This document shows, piece by piece, positions 25,451 through 45,462 of a stretch of 64,000 bases of DNA; the stretch's first letter is position 1, and every line of letters begins with the position of its first letter. Both the position numbers and the translations under genes were made by a program. The stretch comes from Haloplanus salinarum (GTDB taxonomy: Archaea; Halobacteriota; Halobacteria; Halobacteriales; Haloferacaceae), in the NCBI RefSeq assembly GCF_024498175.1, contig NZ_CP101823.1:1798001-1862000 (forward strand). The letters are read 5' to 3'. The notes under the pieces are model-generated. The model did no database searches and was not told the DNA's origin. It worked only from the letters and a program-made list of their open reading frames with translations.

Positions 25451-26091
25451 ACGCGGAGAAATGTAATAAAACTGTAGTTTTTTACGAGCCTAAAACCCAC
25501 GCAGAAGTGTTAGAGGTGCCAAAAAATCCACTTTCGTCCCATTTTGTATAGAAGTATCAAGATAGTGGGAATGGTTTCGGGGCCGGGCTCTCTCCCCCCG
25601 TGGCGCCTCGTCGCTCGCTTCCTCGGGGTCGACCTCGGAAACGGGGCGTCCCGCACCCCACGACGGGGTCGCAGCGGTGGCTCCGTACGAACCCCGCGAG
25701 CGAACGGAGTGAGCGAGTGGGACTACGGGCGGCACACGGACGAAGAGAGTGCGCCGGCCGGGATTTGAACCAAAACCAGACGTGCTCGCTCCCTGCGGTC
25801 GCTGCGCGCGACTGGTAGGGTTCAGACCCCTCTGGGCGATTTTCCTCACTCCGTTCGGAAAATGCACCGGCCGGGATTTGAACCACGGTCGTTCCGCTCG
25901 CGTCCGCTCGCTTCTCTCCCTGATTCAGATCGCCAGCGTGGTGCATACACGGCTCTCACGTTCGTTCGAGACGGTATGCGCCGCCGGCCGGGATTTGAAC
26001 CAAAACCAGACGTGCTCGCTCCCTGCGGTCGCTGCGCGCGACTGGTAGGGTTCAGACCCCTCTGGGCGATTTTCCTCACTCCGTTCGGAAA
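25451..26091. other. Non-coding region with three tandem tRNA-Gly 3'-end scars
   Basis: No gene is credible here. The bases GGCCGGGATTTGAACC, the complement of the T-arm and acceptor end of tRNA-Gly(UCC), recur at about 25755, 25867 and 25985, before the true att copy at 26092. They are spaced 112-118 bases apart. Open frames that run through them spell RDLN-type peptides and are artefacts of tRNA sequence. The region looks like the remains of repeated integrations or partial excisions at one tRNA site. Confidence 0.7.
25752..25865. repeat. 114-bp exact direct repeat, copy 1
   Basis: Identical to 25982-26095. It begins with the tRNA-Gly 3'-end fragment and continues through CCAAAACCAGACGTGCTCGC to GTTCGGAAAATGC, ending where the next tRNA fragment begins. 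It probably arose by recombination between att scars. Confidence 0.85.
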
Positions 26092-26095
26092 ATGC
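25982..26095. repeat. 114-bp exact direct repeat, copy 2
   Basis: Identical to 25752-25865, offset 230 bases. Its last four bases run into the island's left att site. Confidence 0.85.
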
Positions 26096-26134
26096 GCCGG
26101 CCGGGATTTGAACCCGGGCCATGAGCTTGGAAGG
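26092..26134. other. attL of the integrated island
   Basis: 43 bases identical to 45391-45433, covering the 3' portion of tRNA-Gly(UCC) from the acceptor end to the anticodon stem. Identity ends at GGAAGG; after it the tRNA sequence is lost. It marks the left end of the element. Confidence 0.85.
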
Positions 26135-26588: not shown

Positions 26589-26966
26589 AACAGTTCCCGC
26601 GGAGTATCGAACCTTCGAGGTGGCTAAAGCTCTCCGTGTATCGAGCAGACTGAAAAATGACGCAGTCGTTCCCGAAGCAGGAGCGCGACTGAAACCGAGC
26701 TGACAACCTCTCTTCGCTATTTCGACGGAAGTTCGACCTCCAACCCCGAGGGTTTGACCAACGAATATACCGGTGCAATCTCGAAAAATTCAACGCCGTC
26801 TTGCGATTTTCGCCGCCTTTATGATGCTGGACGTTGTTTGTATAGTGAAGGCAATTCCTCGGAGACTTCACCTCTGTCCAGCCGTAGCTATCGCATCTCA
26901 GGGTATTGACCCTTGGAGGGTGGGGAGAGGACTAACCGCCGAGAGCCATCTGACATTCGACTAATT
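26589..26966. other. 378-base intergenic stretch
   Basis: I see no gene. It contains CCGCGGAG followed by CCTTCGAGGTGG (about 26605-26616), a short motif that also follows the genes ending at 28934 and 36163, and a related CCTTGGAGGGTGG near 26909. Confidence 0.5.
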
Positions 26967-28934
26967 ATGACGACAGATTCGATCTCAAACAGCGACAGCT
27001 ATGACGAACTGACGAACTCCTCGGCCGGAGTAACAACTGACGAAGCCCAGGACCGACTCAAAGATACCATTTTCTCCGCACTCAACTCCGCAGAGAATAC
27101 CATCGTTAACGCGCCTACCTCCCTCGGAAAATCACACCAGATCGCAACAACAGCATGGCGAGAGTATCCCGAAGTGACCGGCAGTAACTTGGTCATCCAC
27201 ATTCACCAGACTACGGATGCTCGAAGGGAGGCAGTGGAACGGAGTAAGGCAACTGACGGTGTAGAGTTCGAAGTCTTCGAGGGACGTGAGGACTGCTGTC
27301 CAGTTGCGGCTGGTGACTTCGATCATGAGCTTACCGCTCCGCATGGACTTGCTCCCTCTGAGTGGTTCGACTGGATGTGTGACGTTCGAAAAATCGGATT
27401 CGCTAAGGCACATTCGCAACTGGAGGGGGTGTGTGACTGTCCCTGTTCAGAACAGGGCAAGTGCCCTTCCCTCAAGCAGTGGTGGCAGACCCTCCGAGAT
27501 GAAGATGGACGGCCAACGGTTGACGTTGTCCACACAACAGCGAACTTCGCTCATGTGGCTGAACTTATTGACGGTGCGAACTTGGTTTTCGATGAACGTC
27601 CCGACTACGCCCTGACTCTCGGAGATACCGAACTGCAACAAATTCGTGACTCGATCTCGAATCTCCTTGATTATCGTTCAGACGGCGAATACGCTATATC
27701 TGACGTAATAACAGCTAACCGACACGGGGACTCTGAACTGACGGAAGAGCTACGGTCGCTTCTCGACGAAGAAATCAGCCGAGATTGGTACTTTCGTCGT
27801 GAGGAAACCCATCGACTTGCACCAGCGATTGGACTGGCAATACTCAACGCTGAGGAAATCCTCGAAAACCGATGGGCAGGTGAGGATGCGAATTTCTCGG
27901 GTCGAAGGATGGGGAAACACCGTGGACTCGAAGTCGTAATGAACAGCTCGGGAAAGCTTCGGCACATCGATTACAGTCCCGATCTCTCCGAGGCAAGGTG
28001 TGTTCTCGGACTGGACGCATTTCCTTCGGACTATCGTTGGCAACTCAACACCGTGGATGATCTCACACGCGCGAACGTGTTGTCTCCCAAGGAGCGTCGT
28101 ATTTGGCGGCGAAACGAACGTGGACTGAAAATCGTCCAACTTGGGGACGCTACTCGCTCCTACACGGGGGGATGGGACGGAGCTGGAAAAGAACGCTCAG
28201 CCGGCCTCATTCACATCCTTGTCCGAAAGCATGGAGGGGATTTCGGATCGTGTATCACAGCCAGCAAAATTGAAGACGATGTTCGCCAGCAAATGACTGC
28301 GGCGGGTATCGAGAAGCCACGAACCATGCATTACGGTGCGCAAAACAGTCGGAACGACTTCGGAAATGAAGGGATAGGTTTGCTCGCAGGCTGTATTGAC
28401 CCGGGTGATAAGAACATCCTTGACCTGTTGGCCCTCGGTGGTCGGTATGCATGGCCTGAGATGATAACCACCGAGGAAGGGGAGAAGAAACGGAAGCCTG
28501 GACGTTCGTTTGTGGGGCCGGATTCGGACACTGCACAGGATATTCTCGTATCGGTACGCGAGTCAAATATCGCACAGGCCGCAGGTCGATACGCTCGTGA
28601 CCCCCGCTCACCGGGATCGTCTGCACTCGTGTACGTCTGGTCCGACGCGTGTCCTGAGTCACTGACTGATGAAGTAATCGAAGTTAGCTATCATTCGTTT
28701 ACTGACGCGCGGGAAGACATGGTTGATGCACTCCAGAATGGTTGTCGAACAACGACCGATGTTGTGGGTGAAACTGGTTCGGATAGGTCATATGTCCTTG
28801 ACTGTCTGGATCAGTTTTGTGAACGGAACCTCGTGAACAAGAGCGAAAGAACGGGAAAGTACGGTGCAACCGAATGGGAGTGGCTTGGCGGTGAAGTTGG
28901 AACGACGAAAATCCACGTCCATCTTGACTGCTGA
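26967..28934 (+). CDS. Helicase-like P-loop ATPase with Cys cluster and C-terminal winged helix
   Basis: A 655-aa protein. Walker A APTSLGKS is at about residues 47-55, a DEAD-box-like LVFDERPDY at about 206-214, and a motif-VI-like QAAGRYARDP near 537. Between Walker A and B there is a cysteine cluster (EDCCP, WMCD, VCDCPCSEQGKC, residues 108-167), the position where XPD-type helicases hold an Fe-S domain. The C-terminus (TTTDVVGETGSDRSYVLDCL) looks like a winged helix. It is paralogous to the minus-strand gene at 40332. Start ATG 26967. A replication or DNA-remodelling role for the element is likely; the exact family is not known to me. Confidence 0.65.
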   Translation: MTTDSISNSDSYDELTNSSAGVTTDEAQDRLKDTIFSALNSAENTIVNAPTSLGKSHQIATTAWREYPEVTGSNLVIHIHQTTDARREAVERSKATDGVEFEVFEGREDCCPVAAGDFDHELTAPHGLAPSEWFDWMCDVRKIGFAKAHSQLEGVCDCPCSEQGKCPSLKQWWQTLRDEDGRPTVDVVHTTANFAHVAELIDGANLVFDERPDYALTLGDTELQQIRDSISNLLDYRSDGEYAISDVITANRHGDSELTEELRSLLDEEISRDWYFRREETHRLAPAIGLAILNAEEILENRWAGEDANFSGRRMGKHRGLEVVMNSSGKLRHIDYSPDLSEARCVLGLDAFPSDYRWQLNTVDDLTRANVLSPKERRIWRRNERGLKIVQLGDATRSYTGGWDGAGKERSAGLIHILVRKHGGDFGSCITASKIEDDVRQQMTAAGIEKPRTMHYGAQNSRNDFGNEGIGLLAGCIDPGDKNILDLLALGGRYAWPEMITTEEGEKKRKPGRSFVGPDSDTAQDILVSVRESNIAQAAGRYARDPRSPGSSALVYVWSDACPESLTDEVIEVSYHSFTDAREDMVDALQNGCRTTTDVVGETGSDRSYVLDCLDQFCERNLVNKSERTGKYGATEWEWLGGEVGTTKIHVHLDC

Positions 28935-28935
28935 A

Positions 28936-28987
28936 ATCATTGGGTGTCCCACATAGGGACATTAGGTGAGATACCCTACGATTCCGC
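28936..28987. repeat. 52-bp imperfect direct repeat left of the PglZ operon
   Basis: Matches 36238-36289 at 46 of 52 positions. It contains a small hairpin GTCCC-ACATA-GGGAC and is followed 14 bases later by CCTTCGAGGTGG. It begins 2 bases after the helicase-like gene's stop. The remaining bases to 29335 hold no convincing gene. Confidence 0.75.
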
Positions 28988-29335: not shown

Positions 29336-32185
29336 ATGACGAATCGCGTAATCTCTGATTACATCACACCAGCCGACGAGATTCAGTCGGCTGACGGGGG
29401 GATTACGGCTGACAACCTCCTTGACGAGGTCAGTCTCTACAATCTCTACGACAGCCGGGATTCTCCCGAGCAAGACGCCGAACGGATTCTGAACATCACC
29501 TACCCAACCGAGACACTCAGCGCCATTATCGAACGGACAGCGGAGAAGTTCGATGACTCATCAAGTGTCTCTGAGGGGGCGCACATCATCGGTGGCGAGT
29601 TCGGGAGCGGGAAGAGCCACATCGAACTCGTTCTGTACCACCTTCTCTCCTCACCGAAGTTGGGAGAGGAGTGGCTACAGGAGAACGACATCGACGCCAC
29701 GCTTCCCTCGAACGCACAGACCACCGCCCTCCAGATGCTCAACCTCGACCGCAACTACGACAAACTCCACGTCGCGGTAGGGGACTATCTGGACATCGAC
29801 GAGTGGCAGGAGGGCAACCCTCCGAGCGTTCACGAGATCCGGGACGCCCTTGACGACCGCCCAACCGCGGTCTTCATCGACGAGTTTGAGCGGTGGTTCG
29901 GGATGAGCGGTCGTGCCGACTACCGCGACGACAACCTCGGCTTCCTCCAGAACCTTCTCGAAGCCGCCGGGCGCGACGACACGCCACTCGCGGTCTACGT
30001 CTCGCTCCTGTACGAAGAGGCGGACGTGGAATCGATTCTGCCCCGGACCAATCCCTTCCGGCACGATCTCTCCCGACGGCGCGACGAGAAGATCCGCTTC
30101 CTCCTTCACCGGCTCGTTGGTGATGTGTCCGATCCTAATGGCCTCGAATCTCTCGCCAAGGAGTACACGGATGTCTACCGGAACAACGGGCAGATTCAGC
30201 TCTCCGATTATCAGGACATGGAGGGGCGCATCGAAGATTACTACCCCTTCCATCCGACGGCGCTGGAGACGCTGATGGACAAGTTCTCCGAACAGCAGGG
30301 TCATCAGGACGCCCGTGGACTGCTCCACCTCCTCACCGAGATTCTCGCCGACAACTACCACGAGGTAGATCTCATCCTCACGGGCGACATCGACGTGTTC
30401 GAGTACACCGGCTGGTTCCGGTTCATCGACGAGGAGTTGGTGAGCAAGTACCTCAACGACTATCACCGGCTCGGCGAAGCGTCTACAGACGAGCGGGACA
30501 GCGAGAAGGCCTTTGGGCCACACGTCGAGGAACTACTCAATATCGTTCTGCTCCACAGTCTCGCCCGAGGAGGTGAAGAAGGAGCGAACAAGCGGCAGAT
30601 GCTCATGGGGACGATGCGGAAGGGCAAGAACGCCCACGAGATCGTCCAGACGTTCAAGGAAGATGTGTACGGTCACGCGTGGCACGTCTTCCGCATCAAT
30701 GGCGAGTACGCCTTCGATACCGATGAGAACCCGGCGGCACGCATCGAGAAAAAGGCCGAGGACATCCACAAGAATACGGCCATCCATCGTGTCGAACGAC
30801 TTGTCACGGACGACCTCTTCGGAGGACACAGCAACGTCCACATCCTCGACCCCGTCAACACCGAACAGGACATCCCCGATAGCAAGACGCTGAAGATCGT
30901 CGTCTCCCTCTCGGCCAAACAGAACCAACTCGCCTACAACCAGCAATTCGAGGAACTCACGACGGGACAGGAACGCGAGTTCAACAATACCATCGCTCTC
31001 TTCACGCCGCAGAAACGGTCGAGCGTTGATTCAAACACCGGCATCAGAGAACTTGCACGCAAGGTGGTTGCGGGGGAACAACTCGACCGAGAGGAGGAGG
31101 TTCTGCCCGAGGGGTTCAACGACATCCACGAACAGAACTACCAGAACCTCCTCGACCGTGTTCGAGACAAGTACGGGACAGTCCACGTCTCGACCGACCG
31201 AGGACTCGTTCCGGAGGACATCTCGGTGGCCGAGGGGGAGGACTTCTACACGGCCACCATCGATGTGATCAGGCCGGACATCAGTCAAGTTCGCTCCGAG
31301 GTCGAAGAAGTGGTCGAAGAGAAGGAGGGTGGCGGCATCCAGTACCAGTACCTCCTCAACGACTTCTACCGGAACACGAAGTATCCGACTCTCACCGACG
31401 AGCAGGAACTGAAGGATGCCATCGACGAACTCTGCCGCGACGAGATCGTCAAAGTCGGGAGTTACTTCGGGAAGCCGGTGGGGAGCATCGGGAGCGATAC
31501 CGTTCTGGTTCACGAAGACTACGTACAGACCGTCGAAGAAGAGGACGACGAGCCGGCGACCATCACCGTTGACTCCACGAGTATGGCTGGTGGAGGGAGT
31601 CTCTCGACAGAGGGACAGTCAACGTTAGACTCAGAAGGGGATGGAGAGAGCGATACCGTATCCGGAGCCACGGCAGTATTCGAATGTCCGGAGTGCGGTG
31701 AGGAATTGCAGGGAACGAGTTGTGAGTGTGGGTTCGAGTTCGATGCCTCGGACATCAAAGAGGGGAAAGTCACAGTCGAAGGTGGAGACGCCACGTCACT
31801 CGTAGAGCAGTTCGAGGCTCTGAAAGACGAAGTGGAAGAGGAAGACCTCGAAGGGACGACGACCTCACGATTCCCCGCCTTCGACAAACTGGACGCGACG
31901 GACAAGCCGAGCCTCATCGACACGTTGGAACGCGAACTCGGTATTGGCTGGAAGATTCATACGGTCAATCTGACCTACTCCGGAACGCTGGACGCTGACG
32001 GCGTCTCCAGCCGGGGCCTCGATGAGGATGATCTCGCCGAGCGAGTCACCACCGAGGAAACGCTCGAAATCGATCCCGAGGAACCACTCTCGCGGAACGA
32101 TCTCCTGAACGGCGTCCTCCTCCGGCTTGACGTTCCCGACGACGCCGAGTTCGAGGTGTGGCTGGAGGTCGAGAAGGATGAGTAG
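29336..32185 (+). CDS. DUF499-like (BrxC/PglY-like) P-loop ATPase
   Basis: A 949-aa ATPase. Walker A GGEFGSGKSH is at about residues 86-95 and Walker B TAVFIDEFERW near 180. A C-terminal zinc ribbon (CPECGEEL then CECGFEF) lies at about 782-800, preceded by a winged-helix-like stretch. The fold and size match the DUF499 ATPases that include BREX BrxC/PglY. I start at ATG 29336 because a TATA-like TACTAAAT (29304-29311) is about 28 bases upstream; ATG 29318 is possible. The next gene overlaps its stop by 8 bases. Probably the motor or sensor of a defence complex. Confidence 0.8.
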   Translation: MTNRVISDYITPADEIQSADGGITADNLLDEVSLYNLYDSRDSPEQDAERILNITYPTETLSAIIERTAEKFDDSSSVSEGAHIIGGEFGSGKSHIELVLYHLLSSPKLGEEWLQENDIDATLPSNAQTTALQMLNLDRNYDKLHVAVGDYLDIDEWQEGNPPSVHEIRDALDDRPTAVFIDEFERWFGMSGRADYRDDNLGFLQNLLEAAGRDDTPLAVYVSLLYEEADVESILPRTNPFRHDLSRRRDEKIRFLLHRLVGDVSDPNGLESLAKEYTDVYRNNGQIQLSDYQDMEGRIEDYYPFHPTALETLMDKFSEQQGHQDARGLLHLLTEILADNYHEVDLILTGDIDVFEYTGWFRFIDEELVSKYLNDYHRLGEASTDERDSEKAFGPHVEELLNIVLLHSLARGGEEGANKRQMLMGTMRKGKNAHEIVQTFKEDVYGHAWHVFRINGEYAFDTDENPAARIEKKAEDIHKNTAIHRVERLVTDDLFGGHSNVHILDPVNTEQDIPDSKTLKIVVSLSAKQNQLAYNQQFEELTTGQEREFNNTIALFTPQKRSSVDSNTGIRELARKVVAGEQLDREEEVLPEGFNDIHEQNYQNLLDRVRDKYGTVHVSTDRGLVPEDISVAEGEDFYTATIDVIRPDISQVRSEVEEVVEEKEGGGIQYQYLLNDFYRNTKYPTLTDEQELKDAIDELCRDEIVKVGSYFGKPVGSIGSDTVLVHEDYVQTVEEEDDEPATITVDSTSMAGGGSLSTEGQSTLDSEGDGESDTVSGATAVFECPECGEELQGTSCECGFEFDASDIKEGKVTVEGGDATSLVEQFEALKDEVEEEDLEGTTTSRFPAFDKLDATDKPSLIDTLERELGIGWKIHTVNLTYSGTLDADGVSSRGLDEDDLAERVTTEETLEIDPEEPLSRNDLLNGVLLRLDVPDDAEFEVWLEVEKDE

Positions 32186-33098
32186 CGGTCTCTACGGAAG
32201 CGAACAACTGTCCGAACTGGTCAGAGGTGAGTCCGTCCTCGACGGAGCGTTCGAGTGCTTGCGGCGTATCTGGTCCAGACCGGACGCGCTTGACGGACAG
32301 ACCCTCACCGACTCGGAGTATCGCACGCGCCTGCTGGAACACCACCTCGCGGCGCAAGAGCCTAAATTGTATGACGAACTCAATGCCTCGATGGGTGACC
32401 ATCCAATCACACGCCTTGACTCCGGTTGTGGCGTCATCATGGACGCCCTCAGTCTACGGGAGGGCTTCCAGCTTCTCAGCGATCTTCCCGACGAACACGG
32501 GTGGGACGTGACGTTGGAGTGGTCAGGAGTCGAACGGCTCCCCTCCGAGACGACGTTCATCTGTCGGGAGTGGTTCGACGCCCACAGCCCATCGGCGGTG
32601 AATCGAGACGACTACCGATTCGTCGGCGATCTCGACGTACCGCAGTTGCCCGCGTCAGATCCAGCGTTCGTCTGGACGCGCCATCCCGACCGTCGGCTCG
32701 AAGAGTCGTTCAAGGGGAACTACTCCTCGGAGGCGATGACCGACATCTACAGCGACACGAAGGGTTTGCTGGAGGAAATCGTCGCCGAGAGCGTCCACGA
32801 CGAGTTCCTCGTAACCAGCGACCACGGCTACGTCAACGTACAGGACACCAACCCGTACGTTCTCTCCGACAGCAACGAAGACGCGCTGTCGAGCAAGTTC
32901 TCCGGGCGACACCGCGAGGTTGCGGACGACTATGCGCTTGACCAACTCCACGATGCAGGTGTCATCGAACGAGCGGGGGGTCACTACGTGGTCAAGGGCC
33001 ACTACCACCCGACGAAGCCCGGCGCGACAAAGCACATCCGGCACGGCGGACTCAGCCTGCCGGAGTGTATGACGCCCGTTCTGCGAATCACGACATAG
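32178..33098 (+). CDS. Minimal PglZ-domain protein
   Basis: A 306-aa protein of the alkaline-phosphatase-like PglZ family. It has VIMDALSLREGFQLL (nucleophile region, about residue 84), VTSDHGYVN with the metal-binding DH pair (about 212-220), and the C-terminal HIRHGGLSLPECMTPVL. Canonical BREX PglZ proteins are about 800 residues, so this is the catalytic core with little else. ATG 32178 overlaps the ATPase stop (ATGAGTAG). PglZ is essential in BREX, and its presence is the strongest sign that this operon is antiviral. Confidence 0.82.
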   Translation: MSSGLYGSEQLSELVRGESVLDGAFECLRRIWSRPDALDGQTLTDSEYRTRLLEHHLAAQEPKLYDELNASMGDHPITRLDSGCGVIMDALSLREGFQLLSDLPDEHGWDVTLEWSGVERLPSETTFICREWFDAHSPSAVNRDDYRFVGDLDVPQLPASDPAFVWTRHPDRRLEESFKGNYSSEAMTDIYSDTKGLLEEIVAESVHDEFLVTSDHGYVNVQDTNPYVLSDSNEDALSSKFSGRHREVADDYALDQLHDAGVIERAGGHYVVKGHYHPTKPGATKHIRHGGLSLPECMTPVLRITT

Positions 33099-33107
33099 GA
33101 GCTACTC

Positions 33108-35771
33108 ATGGACAACAAAACTGAGACTTGGGACAAACTCCCGCTGAATCTGATGGACGAACTGGCCGAGAAGGAGACGTATCGACGCGACGTGTACCGC
33201 CCCATATACTCGCTTCACAAGTGGTGGGCGCGTCGGCCCGGCTCCACGTTCCGCTGTCTCGGCCTCGCGGCACTCACAGATGATACCATCACGAAAGACG
33301 ACATCCTTACCGAGCGGACGACCGGGAGCCACGACGGGCTGTACATCGACTCCTACGACGAGCAAATCAACCCGAACGACGAACACATCGACCGCGACGT
33401 GACTGTCCTCGATCCTTTCGCCGGAGGGGGAACGACGCTGGTCGAGATGAACCGCCTCGGCGCGGATGTCGTCGGCTACGAACTCAACCCCGTCGCGTGG
33501 TGGACGGAGAAGAAATCGATGGACGATGTGAACCTTGATGTTCTCGAACGTGAGTCAGACCGGATTCTGGAGGAGGTGCGAGATGAACTCGGGGAGTACT
33601 ACACAACCGTCGATCCCGAGACAGGGCAGGAGTGCGAGGTTCTATACTACTTCCAGTCACAGCGGATTCCGTGTCTGACGTGCGACGAGGAAGTTCAATT
33701 GTTCCCGCGCTACGAATTGTCAAGGACAAAGAAAACGAGTCCGGGTGTTCTGTACTGTCCGAATCAGGAATGTGACGACCGTATCATCGAACTACAAGAC
33801 CGCGACAAAGGCCTTGACGAAGGAACGGAAGTCACCGCCGCAAGTGGCGTCACGATGACTGTTTCGACTGATGGAAATGAGGTCTGTCCAAACTGTGGCC
33901 ACGAGTTTGACCCGACTGATGGAAACGCCGGATGGGGAAAGTACACCTGTTCAAACGGACATAAACACGATATTAAGGAAACACTACGAAGAAAGGATGA
34001 GAAGCCAAAATTTGAGCGATTCGCACTTCAGTACGTAGACCCGCAAGGAAACAAGAAATTCAAAGAGTTCGATTCAACCGACTCTGAGTTAGTAAAATCG
34101 GCCAAAAAACGTCTTAACGAACTCAGAGAGGAACTTCCGCTTCCCAATCAGAGGATTCCAGAAGGGATGGCGATGACAACCGGAGCCTTGCGAAACTACA
34201 ATTACGAACGGTTTAATGAAGTCTTCACCGACCGACATCTTCTGACGTTTGGATTACTGTTTGACCGTGCTTGGAAGACGAAAAAGAAGGAGTTCAAGAA
34301 CGCGGATGCTCAGAATATCGCAGAATTCCTCGTTACCGGCGTGTCGAACAACTTGGAGTACAACGGAAAACTGGTGAAGTGGGGTATCACCTACTCAATT
34401 TCAGGACATGTTTTTGAGCGTCACGCCTACATCCCACGAGTACAACCGATTGAAGGTAATCCTCTCAACAGCCACGGTAGCCGTAATGCGTTAGGTAACT
34501 TCTTTGATAAAATCTTGGAAGCAAAGCGATACTGTAAGGAGCCGTTTGAGAAAGTCAAGAATCGACAGACAGGCGATGTTGAGCAGTACTACGCCACGAA
34601 CGAATCAATCAGCGAAGACAGAGTTGCAGGGCTAAACTGCTCAACGGCAGAGCGAATTGATGCCGATGATGAGTCAGTTGATTACGTCATTACCGATCCT
34701 CCGTACTACGACAACGTACAGTATTCGAAACTATCTGATTACTTCTACGTGTGGCTTCGTGAGTGCCTTCACGAAGAGTACGATGAGTTCAAACCAGAAC
34801 TCGTCCCGAAGGCGCGAGAGATAGTCGCCAACGAGAACGCCAACAAGGACGAGGAGTTCTTCGTCAAGTCGCTCGCCAACGTGTTCTCGGAGTGTCACCG
34901 CGTCCTCAAACAGGACGGGGAGATGATTTTCACCTATCACCACAACGAGAACGAAGCGTGGTCGGTGATTCTGGAGGCACTCATTGAGAGCGGGTTCACC
35001 ATCACGGGTGCGTACCCCGTCCAGTCGGAGATGCCGAACAGTCCTCACATCTCCGAACTCGACAACGCGGAGTACGACATCCTCGTGTTCGCCAACAAGG
35101 AGCAAGCCGACGAGGAAATCACGCTCACGGAACTTCGACAGAACCTCTTCTTCGAGTTGCAAGACATGGCCGAAGAAGAGCGAGAGCGTCACGAAGATCT
35201 CTCCAAGGCTGACCTCGGCGTTATCCTTCGCGGGAAGTGTATGTACTACTACTCCCGGTACTACCCGAACGTCTACTCCGAGGGCGAGCAGGCGGGCATC
35301 GACGAGGCGTTGGAAACGGTGGACTCCATCATCGAACAGGTTCTCGAAGGCTCGGTCAACCTCCCGGCGAGCATCGATGCGATGAGCGAGGCCTACGCCG
35401 CTTTCGTCCAGCGTGGTCCAGAAGGGTACGACGACCTCAACAAGCAACTGCTCGCCAAGAATCTGAACGTCAGCGACCTCGAAGATGAGAAACTCGTGAA
35501 GGGGCCGCGCAAGCTGAAGGAGCCGGTTCCTGCTGATGAGAGGGTCCATCACATCGAGGGGAAATTGAACGGAAACATCACTTCCGACCGCTTGCTCGAC
35601 ATCGACAAAGTACAGTACCTCTACCATCTGTACATCACAGATCAGAACACCGCCGAGTACCTCAGCGAGTGGAAATCCAGCGACCTCGAAGAGTTGGCAG
35701 AGTTCATGGCTGACGCCACGGACGACGACCGCTACGAGAGCGTGATGGAAATGAGCCTCTCACAGTTCTAA
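33108..35771 (+). CDS. DUF1156-family DNA methyltransferase
   Basis: An 887-aa adenine-type methylase. The DUF1156 N-terminus shows YSLHKWWARRPGS (about 35-47). SAM motif I is DPFAGGGTTL (about 102). Two zinc knuckles follow (CLTC with CPNQEC near 188-222; CPNCG with CSNGH near 261-285). Catalytic DPPYYDNVQY is at about 531. The segment from about 33700 to 34780, between motifs I and IV, has clearly lower G+C (21 of 60 at 33961-34020) than the flanks (35 of 60 at 34801-34860), suggesting exchange of the target-recognition part. It probably marks self DNA for the operon. Confidence 0.85.
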   Translation: MDNKTETWDKLPLNLMDELAEKETYRRDVYRPIYSLHKWWARRPGSTFRCLGLAALTDDTITKDDILTERTTGSHDGLYIDSYDEQINPNDEHIDRDVTVLDPFAGGGTTLVEMNRLGADVVGYELNPVAWWTEKKSMDDVNLDVLERESDRILEEVRDELGEYYTTVDPETGQECEVLYYFQSQRIPCLTCDEEVQLFPRYELSRTKKTSPGVLYCPNQECDDRIIELQDRDKGLDEGTEVTAASGVTMTVSTDGNEVCPNCGHEFDPTDGNAGWGKYTCSNGHKHDIKETLRRKDEKPKFERFALQYVDPQGNKKFKEFDSTDSELVKSAKKRLNELREELPLPNQRIPEGMAMTTGALRNYNYERFNEVFTDRHLLTFGLLFDRAWKTKKKEFKNADAQNIAEFLVTGVSNNLEYNGKLVKWGITYSISGHVFERHAYIPRVQPIEGNPLNSHGSRNALGNFFDKILEAKRYCKEPFEKVKNRQTGDVEQYYATNESISEDRVAGLNCSTAERIDADDESVDYVITDPPYYDNVQYSKLSDYFYVWLRECLHEEYDEFKPELVPKAREIVANENANKDEEFFVKSLANVFSECHRVLKQDGEMIFTYHHNENEAWSVILEALIESGFTITGAYPVQSEMPNSPHISELDNAEYDILVFANKEQADEEITLTELRQNLFFELQDMAEEERERHEDLSKADLGVILRGKCMYYYSRYYPNVYSEGEQAGIDEALETVDSIIEQVLEGSVNLPASIDAMSEAYAAFVQRGPEGYDDLNKQLLAKNLNVSDLEDEKLVKGPRKLKEPVPADERVHHIEGKLNGNITSDRLLDIDKVQYLYHLYITDQNTAEYLSEWKSSDLEELAEFMADATDDDRYESVMEMSLSQF

Positions 35772-35773
35772 TT

Positions 35774-36163
35774 ATGAGTCTCCACGCTGGTTACAATCTC
35801 GTGACGGATGCGGTGGAAGACACCGAAGAATCGATTCCAGCACTTGCCTTCTTCCGCCGACTTGCAGGAGATGGTTCGCTCCCCTCTCGTGTGACCGTTA
35901 CCGGCTTGGAAGATCTCCTGTACCGTGCCGACGAGGAGGACTTGGACAACGCCGCTCGAGAACTCCGTGACGTACTTCGAGATGTGAGTTCGTTCCACGG
36001 GCCGCAGGCTGTCCAATTCGTATTCGACGGTGATCTCGTCGACGATGACGTGTTTACCGTTCGAATCGAACGAGGAGGTGACGCGGTCTATCTCCCTGTC
36101 GGGAATCTCTTCGTAGAGGAACCGAACCTCATCACGGCGAATCACGCTGTCGCCCGGAAATAG
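35774..36163 (+). CDS. Small unknown protein, last gene of the PglZ operon
   Basis: A 129-aa acidic protein starting MSLHAGYNLVTDAVEDTEES. ATG 35774 is 2 bases after the methylase TAA, so it is surely co-transcribed. A predicted alpha/beta layout with ELRDVLRDVSSFHGPQAVQF in the middle; no catalytic motif seen. I do not recognise it. By position it may be a dedicated subunit of the system. Confidence 0.7.
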   Translation: MSLHAGYNLVTDAVEDTEESIPALAFFRRLAGDGSLPSRVTVTGLEDLLYRADEEDLDNAARELRDVLRDVSSFHGPQAVQFVFDGDLVDDDVFTVRIERGGDAVYLPVGNLFVEEPNLITANHAVARK

Positions 36164-36620
36164 GCCCTCCTTTAGGTACCGCTTTGTTTCCCCTCGCTTC
36201 ATGCCGCTTCACCGCAGTCTCCAGTGTCGTAGTAGAGATCGTTGGGTGTTCCACATGGGGACATTAAGTGGGATACCCAACGATTCCGCGAGTTTTTTCA
36301 GCCTTAGAGGCGGGGTAAGAGAACCCGCTGTCCTCGTTAAGATGGTGGGAAGATAGATACCAAAACCGACTCTATGCGTCGGAAATCGTCGGTTGAAACA
36401 GAGAGTGTTAATTCCCGGTAGTCGTCAAGATCGCGCTTCCTTCGATAGCTCGTGAAACGGTACAGGCGACTCCAGAGAGCGTTAGGCCGCCATGCAGTCA
36501 GTTTGTTCGAGTCGCCACGCGGCTGATTTCGGCGCTCTCGGTAACCGTCGACACGTTCTCGTGTTCAGAGTTTCCCGAATTGCTCACTGCAGAATGTAGC
36601 GGACAGACAGATTCGAAGTG
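36164..36620. other. 457-base intergenic stretch downstream of the PglZ operon
   Basis: No convincing gene. It holds the right direct repeat (36238-36289), a CCTTAGAGGCGG motif (36302-36313) and one copy of CTCTATGCGT (about 36371). Confidence 0.5.
36238..36289. repeat. 52-bp imperfect direct repeat right of the PglZ operon
   Basis: 46 of 52 positions match 28936-28987. Here the outer arms TCGTTGGGT and ACCCAACGA are perfectly complementary, and the inner hairpin GTTCC-ACATG-GGGAC is kept with a G-U pair replacing a G-C, hinting at a conserved RNA fold. With its partner it brackets the four-gene operon. Confidence 0.75.
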
Positions 36621-37081: not shown

Positions 37082-37779
37082 AGTCGTGTCAAGTTAAGCG
37101 TGAAGAGTGAGGCGTGCTGATTTCTGAGTGTCTATGCCCGAAATCACACGCCTCAGCGACGGTAGCGACTGGATCGAATTAGATTTTGTGGAGCGTCAGC
37201 GGACACCCGAGTTCGCGATGCGGCTCGGTATTCAGATGCACGTGGCTGGACTATCACTTTCGAATACCATCTCGATTCTTGAAAGGTTGGGTGTCGAACG
37301 CTCTCGAACGGCCGTCCACAACTGGGTGCAGAAGGCCGATCTACAGCCCGAAGGCGGTGCGAGCCCGAATCACGTTGCGCTTGACGAAACCGTGATTCGA
37401 ATCAACGATCAGCAATACTGGCTGTACGCCGCCATTGATCCTGAAACAAACACATTCCTTCACATACGGCTTTTTAGCACGTATACGACTGGTTTAACCG
37501 AAATCTTCCTGAGCGAATTACGCGAGAAACACGATGTCGAAACCGCCGTGTTTCTCGTCGACGATGCTCAATGGCTCCAAACTGCCCTCGATCGACACGG
37601 CCTCGATTGCAGATACGAACGCCATGGCAATCGGAATGCCGTCGAACGTCTATTTCGTGAGATAAAACGACGAACCTCTTCGTTTTCAAATACGTTCAGC
37701 CACGTGGAGCCGACGACAGCAGAATCGTGGCTCCAAGCCCTCGCTGTCTGGTGGAATCGATGCCAAAGTTAACACGACC
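37082..37779 (+). mobile_element. IS6-family insertion sequence, 698 bp, intact
   Basis: Terminal inverted repeats of about 18 bases: AGTCGTGTCAAGTTAAGC at the left, GGTCGTGTTAACTTTGGC read inward from the right. One full transposase gene, and a perfect 8-bp duplication outside. All parts look intact, so insertion is recent. Confidence 0.88.
37134..37772 (+). CDS. IS6-family transposase
   Basis: A 212-aa DDE transposase. The catalytic triad is visible in ALDETVIRI (first D), FLVDDAQWL (second D) and NAVERLFREIKRRT (E), preceded by a helix-turn-helix (LSLSNTISILERLGV, then RTAVHNWVQKA). The length is typical of haloarchaeal ISH-type IS6 enzymes. It starts at ATG 37134, with GTG 37128 as an alternative. 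It cuts and joins the 18-bp ends of its own element by replicative transposition. Confidence 0.9.
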   Translation: MPEITRLSDGSDWIELDFVERQRTPEFAMRLGIQMHVAGLSLSNTISILERLGVERSRTAVHNWVQKADLQPEGGASPNHVALDETVIRINDQQYWLYAAIDPETNTFLHIRLFSTYTTGLTEIFLSELREKHDVETAVFLVDDAQWLQTALDRHGLDCRYERHGNRNAVERLFREIKRRTSSFSNTFSHVEPTTAESWLQALAVWWNRCQS

Positions 37780-40331: not shown

Positions 40332-42158
40332 CTATTCCACCTGACCGAACTCCGTGAACTCCTCCAACCGAACATCCGACCAGTGATACGCGTTCCCACG
40401 CCCGCCGCGCCGGTGAGTGACGTATCCTTCCTCGTCCAGCTCTTTCATCAGCTCACCGACCTGCTTCGTCCCGACCGACGTGTTCGACGCGATCTCCTTG
40501 TTGGTAAGCTCGCCATCGGGCCAATCATGCGAACAACGGAGCGCCGCTACAACCTCTTGCATCCCCTCAGACCACGTCTTGATCCGCAAGGGTTCGGGAG
40601 TGACCCACCTCGGTAGTCGGGATGTGTGGACATACACTGCCGCTCCATGCGTGTCAGCACTCGGGGTCCGACCAAAACGTAGCACGGCCTGAAGAACCTC
40701 TTTCTCGACAACGTCTCGAAACAGCGCGTTACCAAGTCCCCCGAAGTCGAGATCGTCGCCACGGGTCGGCTGTCCATCTTCCCGCTCCTTCCGTTCGATG
40801 GATTCCCCATCGAGAGCGCCCCATCGTTTGACAGCCTCATTCTCTGGTGGGTGAGGGCTTCCAATCACCGCGCCAACACGGACTTCTGCGAACCTGTTAC
40901 TTCCTTTGAGATTGCCGTAGTGTTCCACGCCCTCTATGAGTGACAATACGTCTGATGACTCGTACTGTGCTTGAGCTTGCTTTGAGGTGATAACCGCTGG
41001 CCGAGACTCTTCTCGCTCGTAGATCCCCTCCAGCAACGCTCCATCGGATTTGGTATTGACGTGCTTACCGCTCTGATACGGCTTCGAACCAGCATCTGTT
41101 TGCTTGATTTCGAGGCCAAGAACGTCCCGTAGGTACTCCCGTTTCTCCGTATCTGAGTCAAGCACTTCCTCGCGTTCTATCCAGTTTCCACCGAGGGCCA
41201 GTCGCCATTTGGTTACTGTGGGAGTTCCGTCCAAAGCAACGACGCTTTCCGAAGCATAGAGTGGGGGCGGAATGAGGACAGTCCATTCGTCTTCGGGACT
41301 TCGAACGGCTATTCGTCCCGATCTAAGGGTAGCGCACTCCCACTCGTTATCCAGTAGTTCAAACTCAAGTCCAGCATAGGTGAGGAGCGGAGCATGAGCA
41401 TGGAATCCGGGGTTCTGTTGAAGATGTAGTCTCGTATCCCTGTGAGAGTAGAAACCGAGGTTTTCCTTCCACTCCTTGACCTCCTCCTCGTACTCAGAAT
41501 CGTCTCCACGTTCACTCAGATCCTTCCAGTTCTCGAACGGAAGAGTGTCTTCAGCTTTCAGGTAGTTGCTGATCGCTCTCGTCGCTTCGTTATGTGTCGG
41601 TTCGAAAAAGTACGCATCACCCGGAAACTCGTCGATAGCGACGTACCGACCTTCCAAGTAGTCTCGATTGTGAGCTTGGAGGTAGTGACCGATCAGCACG
41701 TCGTAGTCCTCGGGATCGAACTCCCGCCGCTCCATGTATCGACACTTCCCTTGTTGCTGGCAGGGTAGTGGTTGACCGAAGTATTGGCGAGCGTTTTCGT
41801 GGATTTCTGCTCCGGAGATTCCCGACTCATAGATCTGGTTGACCTCCGCCTCCAAGGGTAGATCCTCTCCCATTGTTTCACAGTCATGCTGAAAAGCAGG
41901 TAGTGAGAGGAAACTCAGACCCATCTCTTCACACCACTCCACGTATTGTCCGTAGAGTTCTCGTCGAGAAGTGAAGACGGTAAGTGGATTTCCTGTCCTC
42001 TCAGCCCACTTGATAACTCCATAGCTCTTGCCCATCGCCGGGAGAGCTTCTACGAGGGTAGTGTTGTCTTGGTCGAAAGCGCGACGAATAGAGGCATCGA
42101 GGCGATCCCGAACCTTAGAGAGGGTTAGTGATGGACTTGGTTCCTCAAATAGAGCGAT
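40332..42158 (-). CDS. Helicase-like P-loop ATPase, paralogue of 26967, apparently with an AUC start
   Basis: The frame gives 608 aa. Walker A EALPAMGKSY is at about residues 38-46, IDEFP follows Walker-B-like, a PCQQQGKC cysteine pair sits between them, a motif-VI-like LRFGRTP lies in the C-terminal half, then a winged helix (LTNKEIASNTSVGTKQVGEL). Family-like sequence starts upstream of the first ATG (42035), which would cut off Walker A. No ATG, GTG or TTG exists before the in-frame TGA. ATC at 42158 is exactly 27 bases from a TATA-like TATTTAAT (42181-42188). Conventional coordinates would be 40332-42035. Confidence 0.65.
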   Translation of the reverse strand: MALFEEPSPSLTLSKVRDRLDASIRRAFDQDNTTLVEALPAMGKSYGVIKWAERTGNPLTVFTSRRELYGQYVEWCEEMGLSFLSLPAFQHDCETMGEDLPLEAEVNQIYESGISGAEIHENARQYFGQPLPCQQQGKCRYMERREFDPEDYDVLIGHYLQAHNRDYLEGRYVAIDEFPGDAYFFEPTHNEATRAISNYLKAEDTLPFENWKDLSERGDDSEYEEEVKEWKENLGFYSHRDTRLHLQQNPGFHAHAPLLTYAGLEFELLDNEWECATLRSGRIAVRSPEDEWTVLIPPPLYASESVVALDGTPTVTKWRLALGGNWIEREEVLDSDTEKREYLRDVLGLEIKQTDAGSKPYQSGKHVNTKSDGALLEGIYEREESRPAVITSKQAQAQYESSDVLSLIEGVEHYGNLKGSNRFAEVRVGAVIGSPHPPENEAVKRWGALDGESIERKEREDGQPTRGDDLDFGGLGNALFRDVVEKEVLQAVLRFGRTPSADTHGAAVYVHTSRLPRWVTPEPLRIKTWSEGMQEVVAALRCSHDWPDGELTNKEIASNTSVGTKQVGELMKELDEEGYVTHRRGGRGNAYHWSDVRLEEFTEFGQVE

Positions 42159-44059: not shown

Positions 44060-45205
44060 TCACCACATTGAATCGGCGGCTTTCGTCGCGGCATCGACCG
44101 ACCCACGAGTGTACCGCATCGTCGTTTCGACGTTCTTGTGCCGAAGCTGGTTCTTCGCCAGATAGATCCCCTCCTGTTCAGCCCACATTGAGGCCGATCC
44201 GTGACGGAAGGAATACCACGACAGGTTACGGCCCTGCTGGTCGAGATCGGCCGCCTCGATGAGTTTGGACAGCACGCGATTCAGCGTACCTGACCCGTAG
44301 GTGTTCCCCGTCCGGGTAAGCCACACCGCGTCCCGTCCGTCGTAGAGGTCGTAACTCCCGCGCTCCGAGAGCCAATTGCTCACGGCGGTAACTGATTTGC
44401 TGGAAAGCGCACACTCCCACTCGGCGTCGTTCTTCGTGGACTCATCTTTCGGGACGAGCATCTTCTTGTTCTCCAGATTGAACCAGTCTACCTTCGCACG
44501 CCCCACCTCGATGGGTCGAAGTCCACAGTCTGAGGACACAGAAACAATTGAAGGGATTTTCCACGAGTTTGCCCGCTCGAACTCTTCGGCACCGATCTCC
44601 GATTTGGGCATCTCGAATCGCTGAGCGAGATACGCCTTGATCTGATCACGTTCCGACCGACTAACGCTGTGGTAGCTCTTGACGGAGCTGATAGCGAGTG
44701 CGGCTTCGTAGAGCGCCCGCATCTCTTCGGGGTAGAACTTGTCCTTGGTGGAGGAATCTGAGTTGGTGTCCAGCGGAATGTCGTGGCTCCACTCGGGAAT
44801 GTCCTTGTTCCGCTTCTCGCGGAAGAACTTGAACAGACGCTTCAGTGATTTCTCGAACGTGTAGACGTAAGTTTCAGGATGCGTCGTTCGCCGGACGAGA
44901 AATTCGATTAGTTCCGTTGCGTCATCGGGGGTGAACTCTTTGGTGTAGCTTTCTTCGCGTTCCCACAACCAACGGTAGGCTTCTTCGACCTTGTAGTGGG
45001 TCGTCCGCACCGTAGCATCAGCGTAGCCTTCTCGCTTGTAGGTATCCCGCCCCTCGATGAGTAGCCATTCGAGGAAGGTCTGCTTGAAGTCTCGATAGTC
45101 GTCTCCGAGAAGCGCGGAGAAATCATCGAGTCGTTCTTCCGTTGCCTCTGCTACCGGAGGAACCGGAAATTCGACCGTCTTAGTGGTGTCTTCCTTGAGT
45201 TGCAT
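44060..45205 (-). CDS. Tyrosine-type site-specific integrase
   Basis: A 381-aa recombinase with an N-terminal SAM-like core-binding domain and a C-terminal catalytic domain. Catalytic residues: Arg in DCGLRPIEVGRA, the H-x-x-R box as WYSFRHGSAS with His of RHKNVET, and the nucleophile Tyr in TTMRYTRG. It starts at ATG 45205, 186 bases from the tRNA and reading away from it. It catalyses integration and excision between the 43-bp att sites. Confidence 0.88.
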   Translation of the reverse strand: MQLKEDTTKTVEFPVPPVAEATEERLDDFSALLGDDYRDFKQTFLEWLLIEGRDTYKREGYADATVRTTHYKVEEAYRWLWEREESYTKEFTPDDATELIEFLVRRTTHPETYVYTFEKSLKRLFKFFREKRNKDIPEWSHDIPLDTNSDSSTKDKFYPEEMRALYEAALAISSVKSYHSVSRSERDQIKAYLAQRFEMPKSEIGAEEFERANSWKIPSIVSVSSDCGLRPIEVGRAKVDWFNLENKKMLVPKDESTKNDAEWECALSSKSVTAVSNWLSERGSYDLYDGRDAVWLTRTGNTYGSGTLNRVLSKLIEAADLDQQGRNLSWYSFRHGSASMWAEQEGIYLAKNQLRHKNVETTMRYTRGSVDAATKAADSMW

Positions 45206-45390
45206 GAGTATCACTCCCCGGTTCGGCATTAGCTGAAGCCCGTGGTTTCGGGGCTTCCTTGCCTACCCACTCTAATCGCCACACGGCGGCGGGGTAATCT
45301 CCATTAGCCGAACCGGAAGATTTTCTCTATATTTGGTTTCTGACTGTTTCGCGCCGCAAAATGAGCGTACGAGGCGTGAAACGCCGATTC

Positions 45391-45433
45391 ATGCGCCGGC
45401 CGGGATTTGAACCCGGGCCATGAGCTTGGAAGG
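45391..45433. other. attR of the integrated island, within tRNA-Gly
   Basis: 43 bases identical to attL at 26092-26134, from the base after the discriminator through the T-arm and the 3' side of the anticodon stem. The tRNA is intact here, so integration restored the gene. Confidence 0.85.
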
Positions 45434-45462
45434 CTCAGGTCCTACCACTAGACCACCGGCGC
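45392..45462 (-). tRNA. tRNA-Gly (anticodon UCC)
   Basis: A 71-base cloverleaf on the minus strand: acceptor GCGCCGG paired with CCGGCGC, D-arm around CTAGTGGTAGGAC, anticodon arm TGAGC-CTTCCAA-GCTCA giving anticodon TCC, and T-arm CCCGGGTTCAAATCCCGG. No intron and no encoded CCA. It is the insertion site of the island. Confidence 0.95.

What the first reader, a model, noticed from the sequence alone, without database searches (positions are those of the whole stretch)
29336..36163. Compact PglZ-ATPase-DUF1156 methylase operon: a BREX-like system without the usual partners
Four tightly packed genes (8-base overlap, then 9- and 2-base gaps) encode a DUF499-like ATPase, a 306-aa PglZ core, a DUF1156 DNA methylase and a 129-aa unknown protein. 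PglZ with a BrxC/PglY-like ATPase is the heart of BREX, but there is no BrxA, BrxB, PglX, BrxL/Lon or BrxHII here, and the methylase is of another family. The PglZ is less than half the usual length. The operon sits in an integrated island, as defence systems often do. DUF499, DUF1156 and PglZ are each known in defence islands; this exact minimal set may be little or not described.
Basis: partly seen in the sequence, partly recalled or inferred. Interest (0 to 1): 0.82.

Follow-up and report, generated by a model that had tools for sequence, protein, structure and literature searches.

The report
Helicase-free four-gene BREX-related defence operon
This is an intact, recurring four-gene DNA-marking and DNA-cutting operon of salt-loving archaea, most likely an antiviral system: a stripped-down relative of the recently described 'Type-3 BREX-related' systems that has everything except the helicase its relatives outside salt-loving archaea usually carry.

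Summary
Four intact, tightly packed genes (29336-36163) encode a DUF499/HmaC-like AAA+ ATPase, a 306-aa stand-alone PglZ, a DUF1156/HmaB-type DNA methyltransferase and a 129-aa protein. They lie in a 19.3-kb island bounded by a duplicated tRNA-Gly end. All 30 haloarchaeal loci examined (30 of 391 species genomes, two deep clades) carry the same genes in the same order, and no fifth gene recurs beside them. The kind is not new: it matches 'Type-3 BR' systems (NAR 2026, gkag035), defined by DUF499 ATPase, DUF1156 methyltransferase, stand-alone PglZ, usually a small inactive-STAND protein, and a BrxHII-like helicase. The 129-aa protein sits where that small protein sits and shares its motif pattern, so it is probably the BrxB-like subunit (inferred). 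What differs is the helicase. It adjoins the operon in Methanoperedens, Methanosarcinaceae and Klebsiella-plasmid relatives. It lies within the ~20-kb stretch at 18 of 20 other haloarchaeal DUF1156 loci, but at only 1 of 30 of these (a fragment). The window's complete genome has no BrxHII-like helicase. Best reading: a helicase-free Type-3 BR variant working as a minimal BREX-like restriction-modification machine. Defence activity is untested.

The parts
29336..32185 (+). DUF499/HmaC-like AAA+ ATPase (BrxC counterpart), 949 aa; Walker A GGEFGSGKSH and Walker B FIDEFE intact
   Evidence: HmaC 1.6e-15; SspC and BrxC weak; motifs compared with 13 relatives
32178..33098 (+). stand-alone PglZ phosphodiesterase/nuclease domain, 306 aa; D89, T125 (LPSET), D171, D215/H216 (SDHGY) and H289 (HGG) invariant in 24 sequences
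   Evidence: 9nv3 1.5e-7; PorX probability 1.00
33108..35771 (+). DUF1156/HmaB-type DNA methyltransferase, 887 aa; motif I DPFAGGGT, Cys-rich target-recognition insert (two zinc-finger-like clusters), motif IV DPPY (predicted N6-adenine)
   Evidence: DUF1156 1.2e-5; N6_N4_Mtase 5e-16; HmaB 2.9e-43
35774..36163 (+). 129-aa conserved core protein, probably the iSTAND/BrxB-like small subunit (inferred)
   Evidence: pLDDT 84.7; present in 30/30 loci
28933..28987 (+). 55-nt hairpin-forming direct repeat, copy 1, directly after the upstream gene; frames the operon; function unknown
36235..36289 (+). 55-nt hairpin-forming direct repeat, copy 2 (87% identical), 72 nt after the last gene
26092..26134 (.). 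left att-like repeat: 43 nt identical to the tRNA-Gly end at 45391-45433
44060..45229 (-). tyrosine integrase of the island (Phage_integrase 5.8e-14)
45392..45462 (-). tRNA-Gly(tcc), integration site and right end of the island

Best explanation
A helicase-free variant of the Type-3 BREX-related (BR) restriction-modification-like defence systems. The DUF1156 methyltransferase marks host DNA, probably as N6-methyladenine at an unknown site. The DUF499 ATPase (BrxC counterpart) assembles on DNA with ATP and scans it. The 129-aa protein (BrxB-like bridge) couples PglZ to the ATPase. Unmarked incoming DNA switches the complex to restriction, and PglZ, a metal-dependent nuclease, nicks or cuts it. 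Shown here: gene content, conserved order, intact catalytic motifs, PglZ fold, purifying selection, patchy spread over genera, island and plasmid setting, no adjacent helicase. Inferred: methylation type, complex formation, PglZ as effector, defence itself, and that no helicase acts in trans.
For: Same four genes in the same order in 30/30 haloarchaeal loci, in two clades whose PglZ share only 26-33% identity. No other neighbour family is shared by more than 5 of 29 loci. Membership features of Type-3 BR met: stand-alone PglZ with invariant metal residues and PorX/BREX-PglZ fold, DUF499-like ATPase, DUF1156 methyltransferase with Cys-rich insert. Direct relatives include Methanoperedens (ATPase-PglZ-MTase-126 aa-SNF2/BrxHII helicase), a member of the order of G555, probably Methanosarcinaceae (ATPase-PglZ-MTase-169 aa-helicase), and a Klebsiella plasmid (DUF499-PglZ-SIR2-ATPase-DUF1156-166 aa-SNF2). 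A helicase is found at 1/30 module loci against 18/20 other haloarchaeal DUF1156 loci, and no BrxHII-like helicase in the window's single-contig genome. Mechanism by analogy: BREX PglZ is a metal-dependent DNase that contributes to defence but not methylation (gkaf540); BrxB-BrxC-PglZ form a core complex with BrxB as bridge (gkag651).
Against: No functional test exists. The iSTAND identity of the 129-aa protein rests on position and a shared motif pattern; profile comparison with the bacterial and methanogen versions was not significant, and Foldseek found nothing significant (only weak RecA-like hits). In BREX, PglZ active-site mutants kept much of the defence, so PglZ may not be the only effector. 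20 of 30 module genomes carry some SNF2-type helicase elsewhere, which could act in trans.
Confidence: 0.72

Rival explanations
1. A Type-3 BR system whose helicase is supplied in trans by another host or defence-system SNF2 helicase, so the mechanism is unchanged and only gene linkage was lost.
For: 20 of 30 module genomes have at least one SNF2/BrxHII-like match at E<=1e-20 elsewhere, against 171 of 361 other genomes (Fisher p 0.056). Close kin in Methanoperedens keep the helicase next to the operon.
Against: Ten module genomes, the window's complete single-contig genome among them, have none at that level; its only SNF2-domain match is a weak one (4.9e-9) in a 642-aa frame. The listed hits are only 27-43% identical over part of the protein, as expected of helicases from other systems.
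Confidence: 0.15
2. The operon protects or stabilises the mobile element that carries it (addiction or exclusion of competing elements, as for selfish restriction-modification) rather than mainly defending the host against viruses.
For: It sits in an integrase/tRNA island here and on plasmids in 7 haloarchaeal records. PglZ degrades DNA without site specificity in BREX.
Against: Defence systems as a class sit on such elements, so location does not discriminate; neighbours are not a conserved mobile-element set.
Confidence: 0.2
3. PglZ acts on cyclic or linear oligonucleotide signals, as in PorX, and the operon is a signalling or epigenetic-regulatory unit, not a DNA-cutting one.
For: The best fold matches are PorX, a response regulator; BREX PglZ also cleaves cyclic hexa-adenylate.
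Against: No other gene family recurs nearby, so no conserved nucleotide cyclase or regulator. PglZ is always linked to a BrxC-like ATPase and a DNA methyltransferase, the BREX/BR setting.
Confidence: 0.08
4. A true BREX system reduced to four genes.
For: Functionally parallel core: BrxC-like ATPase, PglZ, methyltransferase, probable BrxB-like protein.
Against: The methyltransferase is DUF1156/HmaB-type, not PglX; the ATPase matches HmaC at 1.6e-15 but BrxC only at 0.0076; PglZ lacks the long BREX N-terminal region; no BrxB family match in the genome.
Confidence: 0.03

Closest known systems
Type-3 BREX-Related (BR) systems (Rakesh and Krishnan, NAR 2026, gkag035, PMC12839542)
   Same: DUF499 ATPase, DUF1156 N6-methyltransferase, stand-alone active PglZ of about 300 aa, small protein beside the methyltransferase; no conserved stand-alone nuclease
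   Different: No BrxHII-like helicase in the operon, nor a BrxHII-like one elsewhere in this genome, whereas the published text lists it among the three retained core components; iSTAND identity of the small protein not proven
Hma system (PADLOC, NAR 2021, PMC8565338; included in BR by gkag035)
   Same: HmaB-like methyltransferase and HmaC-like ATPase
   Different: Hma is helicase + methylase + ATPase; here there is PglZ and no HmaA
Type-1 BREX
   Same: BrxC-like ATPase + PglZ nuclease + methyltransferase, probably a BrxB-like bridge; no helicase
   Different: No BrxA, BrxL or PglX family genes beside it; PglZ is the catalytic domain only
Haloarchaeal DUF1156 loci without PglZ (L168, L170-L177, L179, L180, L182 here)
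   Same: Related ATPase and methyltransferase and a homologue of the 129-aa protein (E about 1e-6 to 1e-12)
   Different: Mostly with a divergently transcribed SNF2 helicase and varied type IV-like nucleases in place of PglZ

Membership tests
Type-3 BR (gkag035) | stand-alone PglZ with conserved metal-site residues | tested here: met
   306 aa; D89, T125, D171, D215, H216, H289 invariant in 24 sequences; BREX PglZ and PorX by profile and fold. Fold model confidence is moderate (pLDDT 66)
Type-3 BR (gkag035) | DUF499-class AAA+ ATPase | tested here: met
   HmaC 1.6e-15; homologues annotated DUF499; Walker motifs intact. No Pfam match for the window copy itself
Type-3 BR (gkag035) | DUF1156 N6-methyltransferase with target-recognition insert; a subset has two zinc fingers | tested here: met
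   DUF1156 over cut-off, HmaB 2.9e-43; two Cys clusters between motif I and DPPY
Type-3 BR (gkag035) | BrxHII-like SNF2 helicase in the locus | tested here: not met
   none adjacent in 30/30 haloarchaeal loci; a RapA_C fragment 3.9 kb away in one; none BrxHII-like in the window's genome. It is therefore filed as a variant, not as a standard member
Type-3 BR (gkag035) | iSTAND (BrxB/BrxF-like) small protein (82% of taxa) | tested here: inconclusive
   129-aa gene in 30/30 loci, in the position of the 166/169-aa gene of helicase-bearing relatives, shared motif pattern, predicted run of three strands after a strand that follows the long helix; profile and fold comparisons not significant
Hma (PADLOC) | HmaA helicase with HmaB and HmaC | tested here: not met
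   HmaB and HmaC matches only; no helicase
BREX (types 1-6) | BrxC (DUF6079) ATPase with PglZ | tested here: not met
   BrxC 0.0076 against HmaC 1.6e-15; NCBIfam PglY 14 bits against a cut-off of 1700
BREX (types 1-6) | BrxA and BrxB families | tested here: inconclusive
   no BrxB family match in the genome; the BrxA search rang in no control genome, so it shows nothing
any antiviral defence system | measured protection against a virus | not testable with these tools

The most novel reading that the evidence does not exclude
The four genes are a complete, stand-alone minimal BREX-like defence machine, in which ATPase + BrxB-like bridge + PglZ nuclease + self-marking methyltransferase suffice without helicase, BrxA or BrxL, and this helicase-free state arose or persisted in two separate haloarchaeal lineages while close archaeal kin keep a helicase or have a HerA-type translocase in its place.
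Probability: 0.45. Interest if true: 0.65.

Novelty: new variant of a known kind. Interest (0 to 1): 0.52.

Why it matters
How BREX and its relatives stop viruses is still unsettled: helicase, BrxL and PglZ are all candidates for the working part. A natural four-gene version with PglZ as the only recognisable nuclease and no helicase isolates the ATPase-bridge-PglZ core that recent BREX structures point to, and makes 'is PglZ alone enough?' directly testable. It occurs in culturable haloarchaea (Halorubrum lacusprofundi, Haloarcula japonica and a Halobacterium salinarum plasmid among them). It would also qualify the published picture in which a helicase is a retained core component of Type-3 BR systems.

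Tried and rejected
(1) Upstream helicase-like gene 26913-28934 as the missing helicase: no Pfam helicase match and only a weak HamB hit; a homologue lies near just one of 29 other operons (37% identity, L035). Rejected as a conserved partner. (2) A fifth conserved gene: neighbour clustering found none shared by more than 5 of 29 loci. (3) A dedicated helicase elsewhere in the genome: not found in G000; the genome-wide association is weak (20/30 against 171/361). (4) Identifying the 129-aa protein by HMM libraries, PDB profile and fold search: nothing significant. (5) Viral contigs: no relative of this PglZ. (6) The framing 55-nt repeats as a general property of the system: nothing of comparable strength at the 29 relatives' loci (two weaker direct repeats, L050 and L054), and absent from 117 other genomes.
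Full report
WHAT IS THERE. The window is part of a complete single-contig haloarchaeal chromosome (G000:C1:1798001-1862000, 3.45 Mb). Base composition drops from about 69% G+C to 45-60% between about 26 and 46 kb. This stretch is an integrated island: a 43-bp stretch of the tRNA-Gly gene at 45392-45462 is repeated without a mismatch at 26092-26134, and an integrase gene (44060-45229) lies beside the tRNA. Inside lie the four genes reported, with the stated coordinates, an 8-nt overlap and then gaps of 9 and 2 nt.

WHAT THE PROTEINS ARE. The first protein's best family is HmaC, the DUF499-type AAA+ ATPase (1.6e-15), with only faint SspC and BrxC similarity; its Walker A and B motifs are intact and conserved. 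The second is a PglZ domain. Single-sequence HMMs are weak (Pfam 0.066, PADLOC 0.003), but a family profile finds BREX PglZ structures first (1.5e-7, 1.9e-4) and then PorX, and an AlphaFold2 model of moderate confidence (pLDDT 66) matches PorX with probability 1.00 and BREX PglZ 9zn5 at 3e-4. The residues expected at the metal site (D89, T125 in LPSET, D171, D215-H216 in SDHGY, H289 in HGG) are invariant in 24 sequences. T125 and H289 align with or next to the LPSYT and HGG motifs of 9nv3; that these are the T538 and H741 positions tested in gkaf540 is my inference. The third is a DUF1156 methyltransferase (HmaB 2.9e-43), with motif I, a Cys-rich insert and then DPPY. The fourth, 129 aa, matches no family library.

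IS THE SET REAL AND CONSERVED. A search of 391 haloarchaeal species genomes with this PglZ found 30 genomes in 22 of 86 genera: 16 in a close clade (the window and 15 others at 48-78% identity to it) and 14 in a distant clade (28-33%). I fetched about 20 kb around each. Every one has ATPase, PglZ, methyltransferase and a homologue of the 129-aa gene in this order (the ATPase of L060 is split into two frames). No other gene family recurs in more than 5 of 29 neighbourhoods. dN/dS between close members is about 0.05-0.19 for all four genes, with near-saturated synonymous sites, so only the direction is safe. Seven plasmid records carry it too. A scan of viral contigs found none.

WHAT IT IS RELATED TO. 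A 2026 survey (gkag035, PMC12839542) defines DUF499-centred 'BREX-Related' systems. Its Type-3 has DUF499 ATPase, DUF1156 methyltransferase, stand-alone active PglZ, a small inactive-STAND protein in 82% of taxa, and a BrxHII-like helicase. It counts 134 archaeal taxa but the main text names no haloarchaea, and its supplement could not be read here, so these loci may already be in its tables. A later paper describes Type-3 BR as a minimal PglZ together with a BrxB homologue (gkag651).

THE HELICASE. In relatives outside haloarchaea the helicase is often present: Methanoperedens has ATPase-PglZ-MTase-126 aa-helicase (1092 aa, BrxHI/II model 1.3e-125), G796 (in the order of G555; I take it for Methanosarcinaceae, not checked by name) has ATPase-PglZ-MTase-169 aa-helicase (931 aa), and a Klebsiella plasmid has DUF499-PglZ-SIR2-ATPase-DUF1156-166 aa-SNF2. 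Other archaeal relatives vary: G413 has a HerA-type ATPase in the helicase's place, G526 has nothing (next long gene on the other strand), and an ANME-2 locus has a 400-aa gene and an HsdR_N-like gene between PglZ and the methyltransferase. In haloarchaea no locus has an adjacent helicase; one has a RapA_C-type fragment 3.9 kb away beyond an oppositely oriented gene. As a control I took 20 other haloarchaeal DUF1156 loci: 18 have the helicase within the stretch (1/30 against 18/20, Fisher p 2e-10; loci are related, so the p-value is only a guide). The window's genome has no match to the Methanoperedens helicase at E<=1e-20 and a single weak SNF2-domain match (4.9e-9, 642-aa frame), and this is its only DUF1156 gene. 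Ten of the 30 module genomes have no such helicase; 20 have some (against 171 of 361 others, p 0.056), so help in trans cannot be excluded in general.

TREES. In the methyltransferase tree the archaeal PglZ-bearing systems group together (92/90), and the window's clade is sister to the Methanoperedens/ANME-2 pair (100/99; 100/100 in the ATPase tree), apart from the second haloarchaeal clade. This suggests the helicase-free state in the two haloarchaeal clades is not one recent loss, but long branches (Klebsiella, G413) make deep placements unsure and the ATPase tree is weak at the base.

THE SMALL PROTEIN. The AlphaFold2 model (pLDDT 84.7) has alternating strands and helices, then a strand followed by three more consecutive strands after the long helix. 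That order fits the published iSTAND description (three-stranded antiparallel insert after strand 4, no C-terminal helical bundle). It sits where the 166/169-aa gene sits in helicase-bearing relatives and shares with them a pattern of an LP motif, a strand ending in GLE or GLD, and a later strand with a conserved F, but hhalign and Foldseek give no significant support. I therefore treat 'BrxB/iSTAND-like' as likely but inferred. Homologues (E about 1e-6 to 1e-12) also occur at 12 of the 20 control loci, which lack PglZ; this association is not mentioned in the parts of the survey I read.

HOW IT PROBABLY WORKS. [quoted passage not shown]), and BrxC-BrxB-PglZ form a core complex with BrxB as bridge (gkag651). 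The operon carries a counterpart, proven or probable, of each of these plus a self-marking methyltransferase. The simplest mechanism is methylation-guided restriction, with PglZ cutting unmarked DNA under control of the ATPase. The absence of a helicase suggests that translocation is either unnecessary or done by the ATPase. All functional steps are inferred.

VERDICT. A real, conserved and intact system; not categorically new. It is best filed as a helicase-free variant of Type-3 BR, because one published core feature (the helicase) was tested and not met.

Noticed in passing
28933-28987 and 36235-36289: Two 55-nt hairpin-forming direct repeats (87% identical; copy 2 folds at -30.9 kcal/mol) frame the operon. 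A core pattern (up to 2 mismatches) occurs only at these two places in the genome and in none of 117 other genomes searched, so the 7.3-kb module may have moved as a cassette.
   Followed up: partly
26913-28934 and 40332-42035: Two proteins with P-loop/helicase-like motifs and almost no family match; homologues lie near two other copies of the operon (L035, L053). Possibly a replication or helicase family of haloarchaeal integrated elements.
   Followed up: partly
L168, L170-L177, L179, L180, L182: Haloarchaeal DUF1156 loci without PglZ carry a homologue of the 129-aa protein, mostly with a divergent SNF2 helicase, varied inserted genes (Mrr-like, GmrSD/DUF262-like) and often a McrBC-like pair: a possible exchange of PglZ for type IV-like nucleases.
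   Followed up: partly
L134:6693-14865: In genome G413 the ATPase-PglZ-MTase-131 aa set is followed by a HerA-type ATPase (DUF87 8.4e-14) in the place of the helicase.
   Followed up: partly
L072:5693-6385, L080:5723-6415, L133:5359-6069, L135:231-923: A RadC-like gene lies directly upstream of the ATPase in the ANME-2, Methanoperedens, G495 and G526 relatives but is not a recurrent neighbour in haloarchaea.
   Followed up: no
L072:9932-12038: The ANME-2 copy carries a 400-aa unknown gene and an HsdR_N-like nuclease gene inserted between PglZ and the methyltransferase.
   Followed up: no
25749-26134: Several partial tRNA-Gly-like repeats (133-nt and 43-nt families) at the left island end, suggesting repeated integrations at the same site.
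   Followed up: no
36364, 37902, 38723, 40262 and 37817, 40056, 42111: Two short dispersed repeat families (CTCTATGCGT and AACCTTAGAG) recur in the island's right half; unexplained.
   Followed up: no
37128-37772: IS6/IS240-type transposase (DDE_Tnp_IS240 1.3e-6) just downstream of the operon.
   Followed up: no
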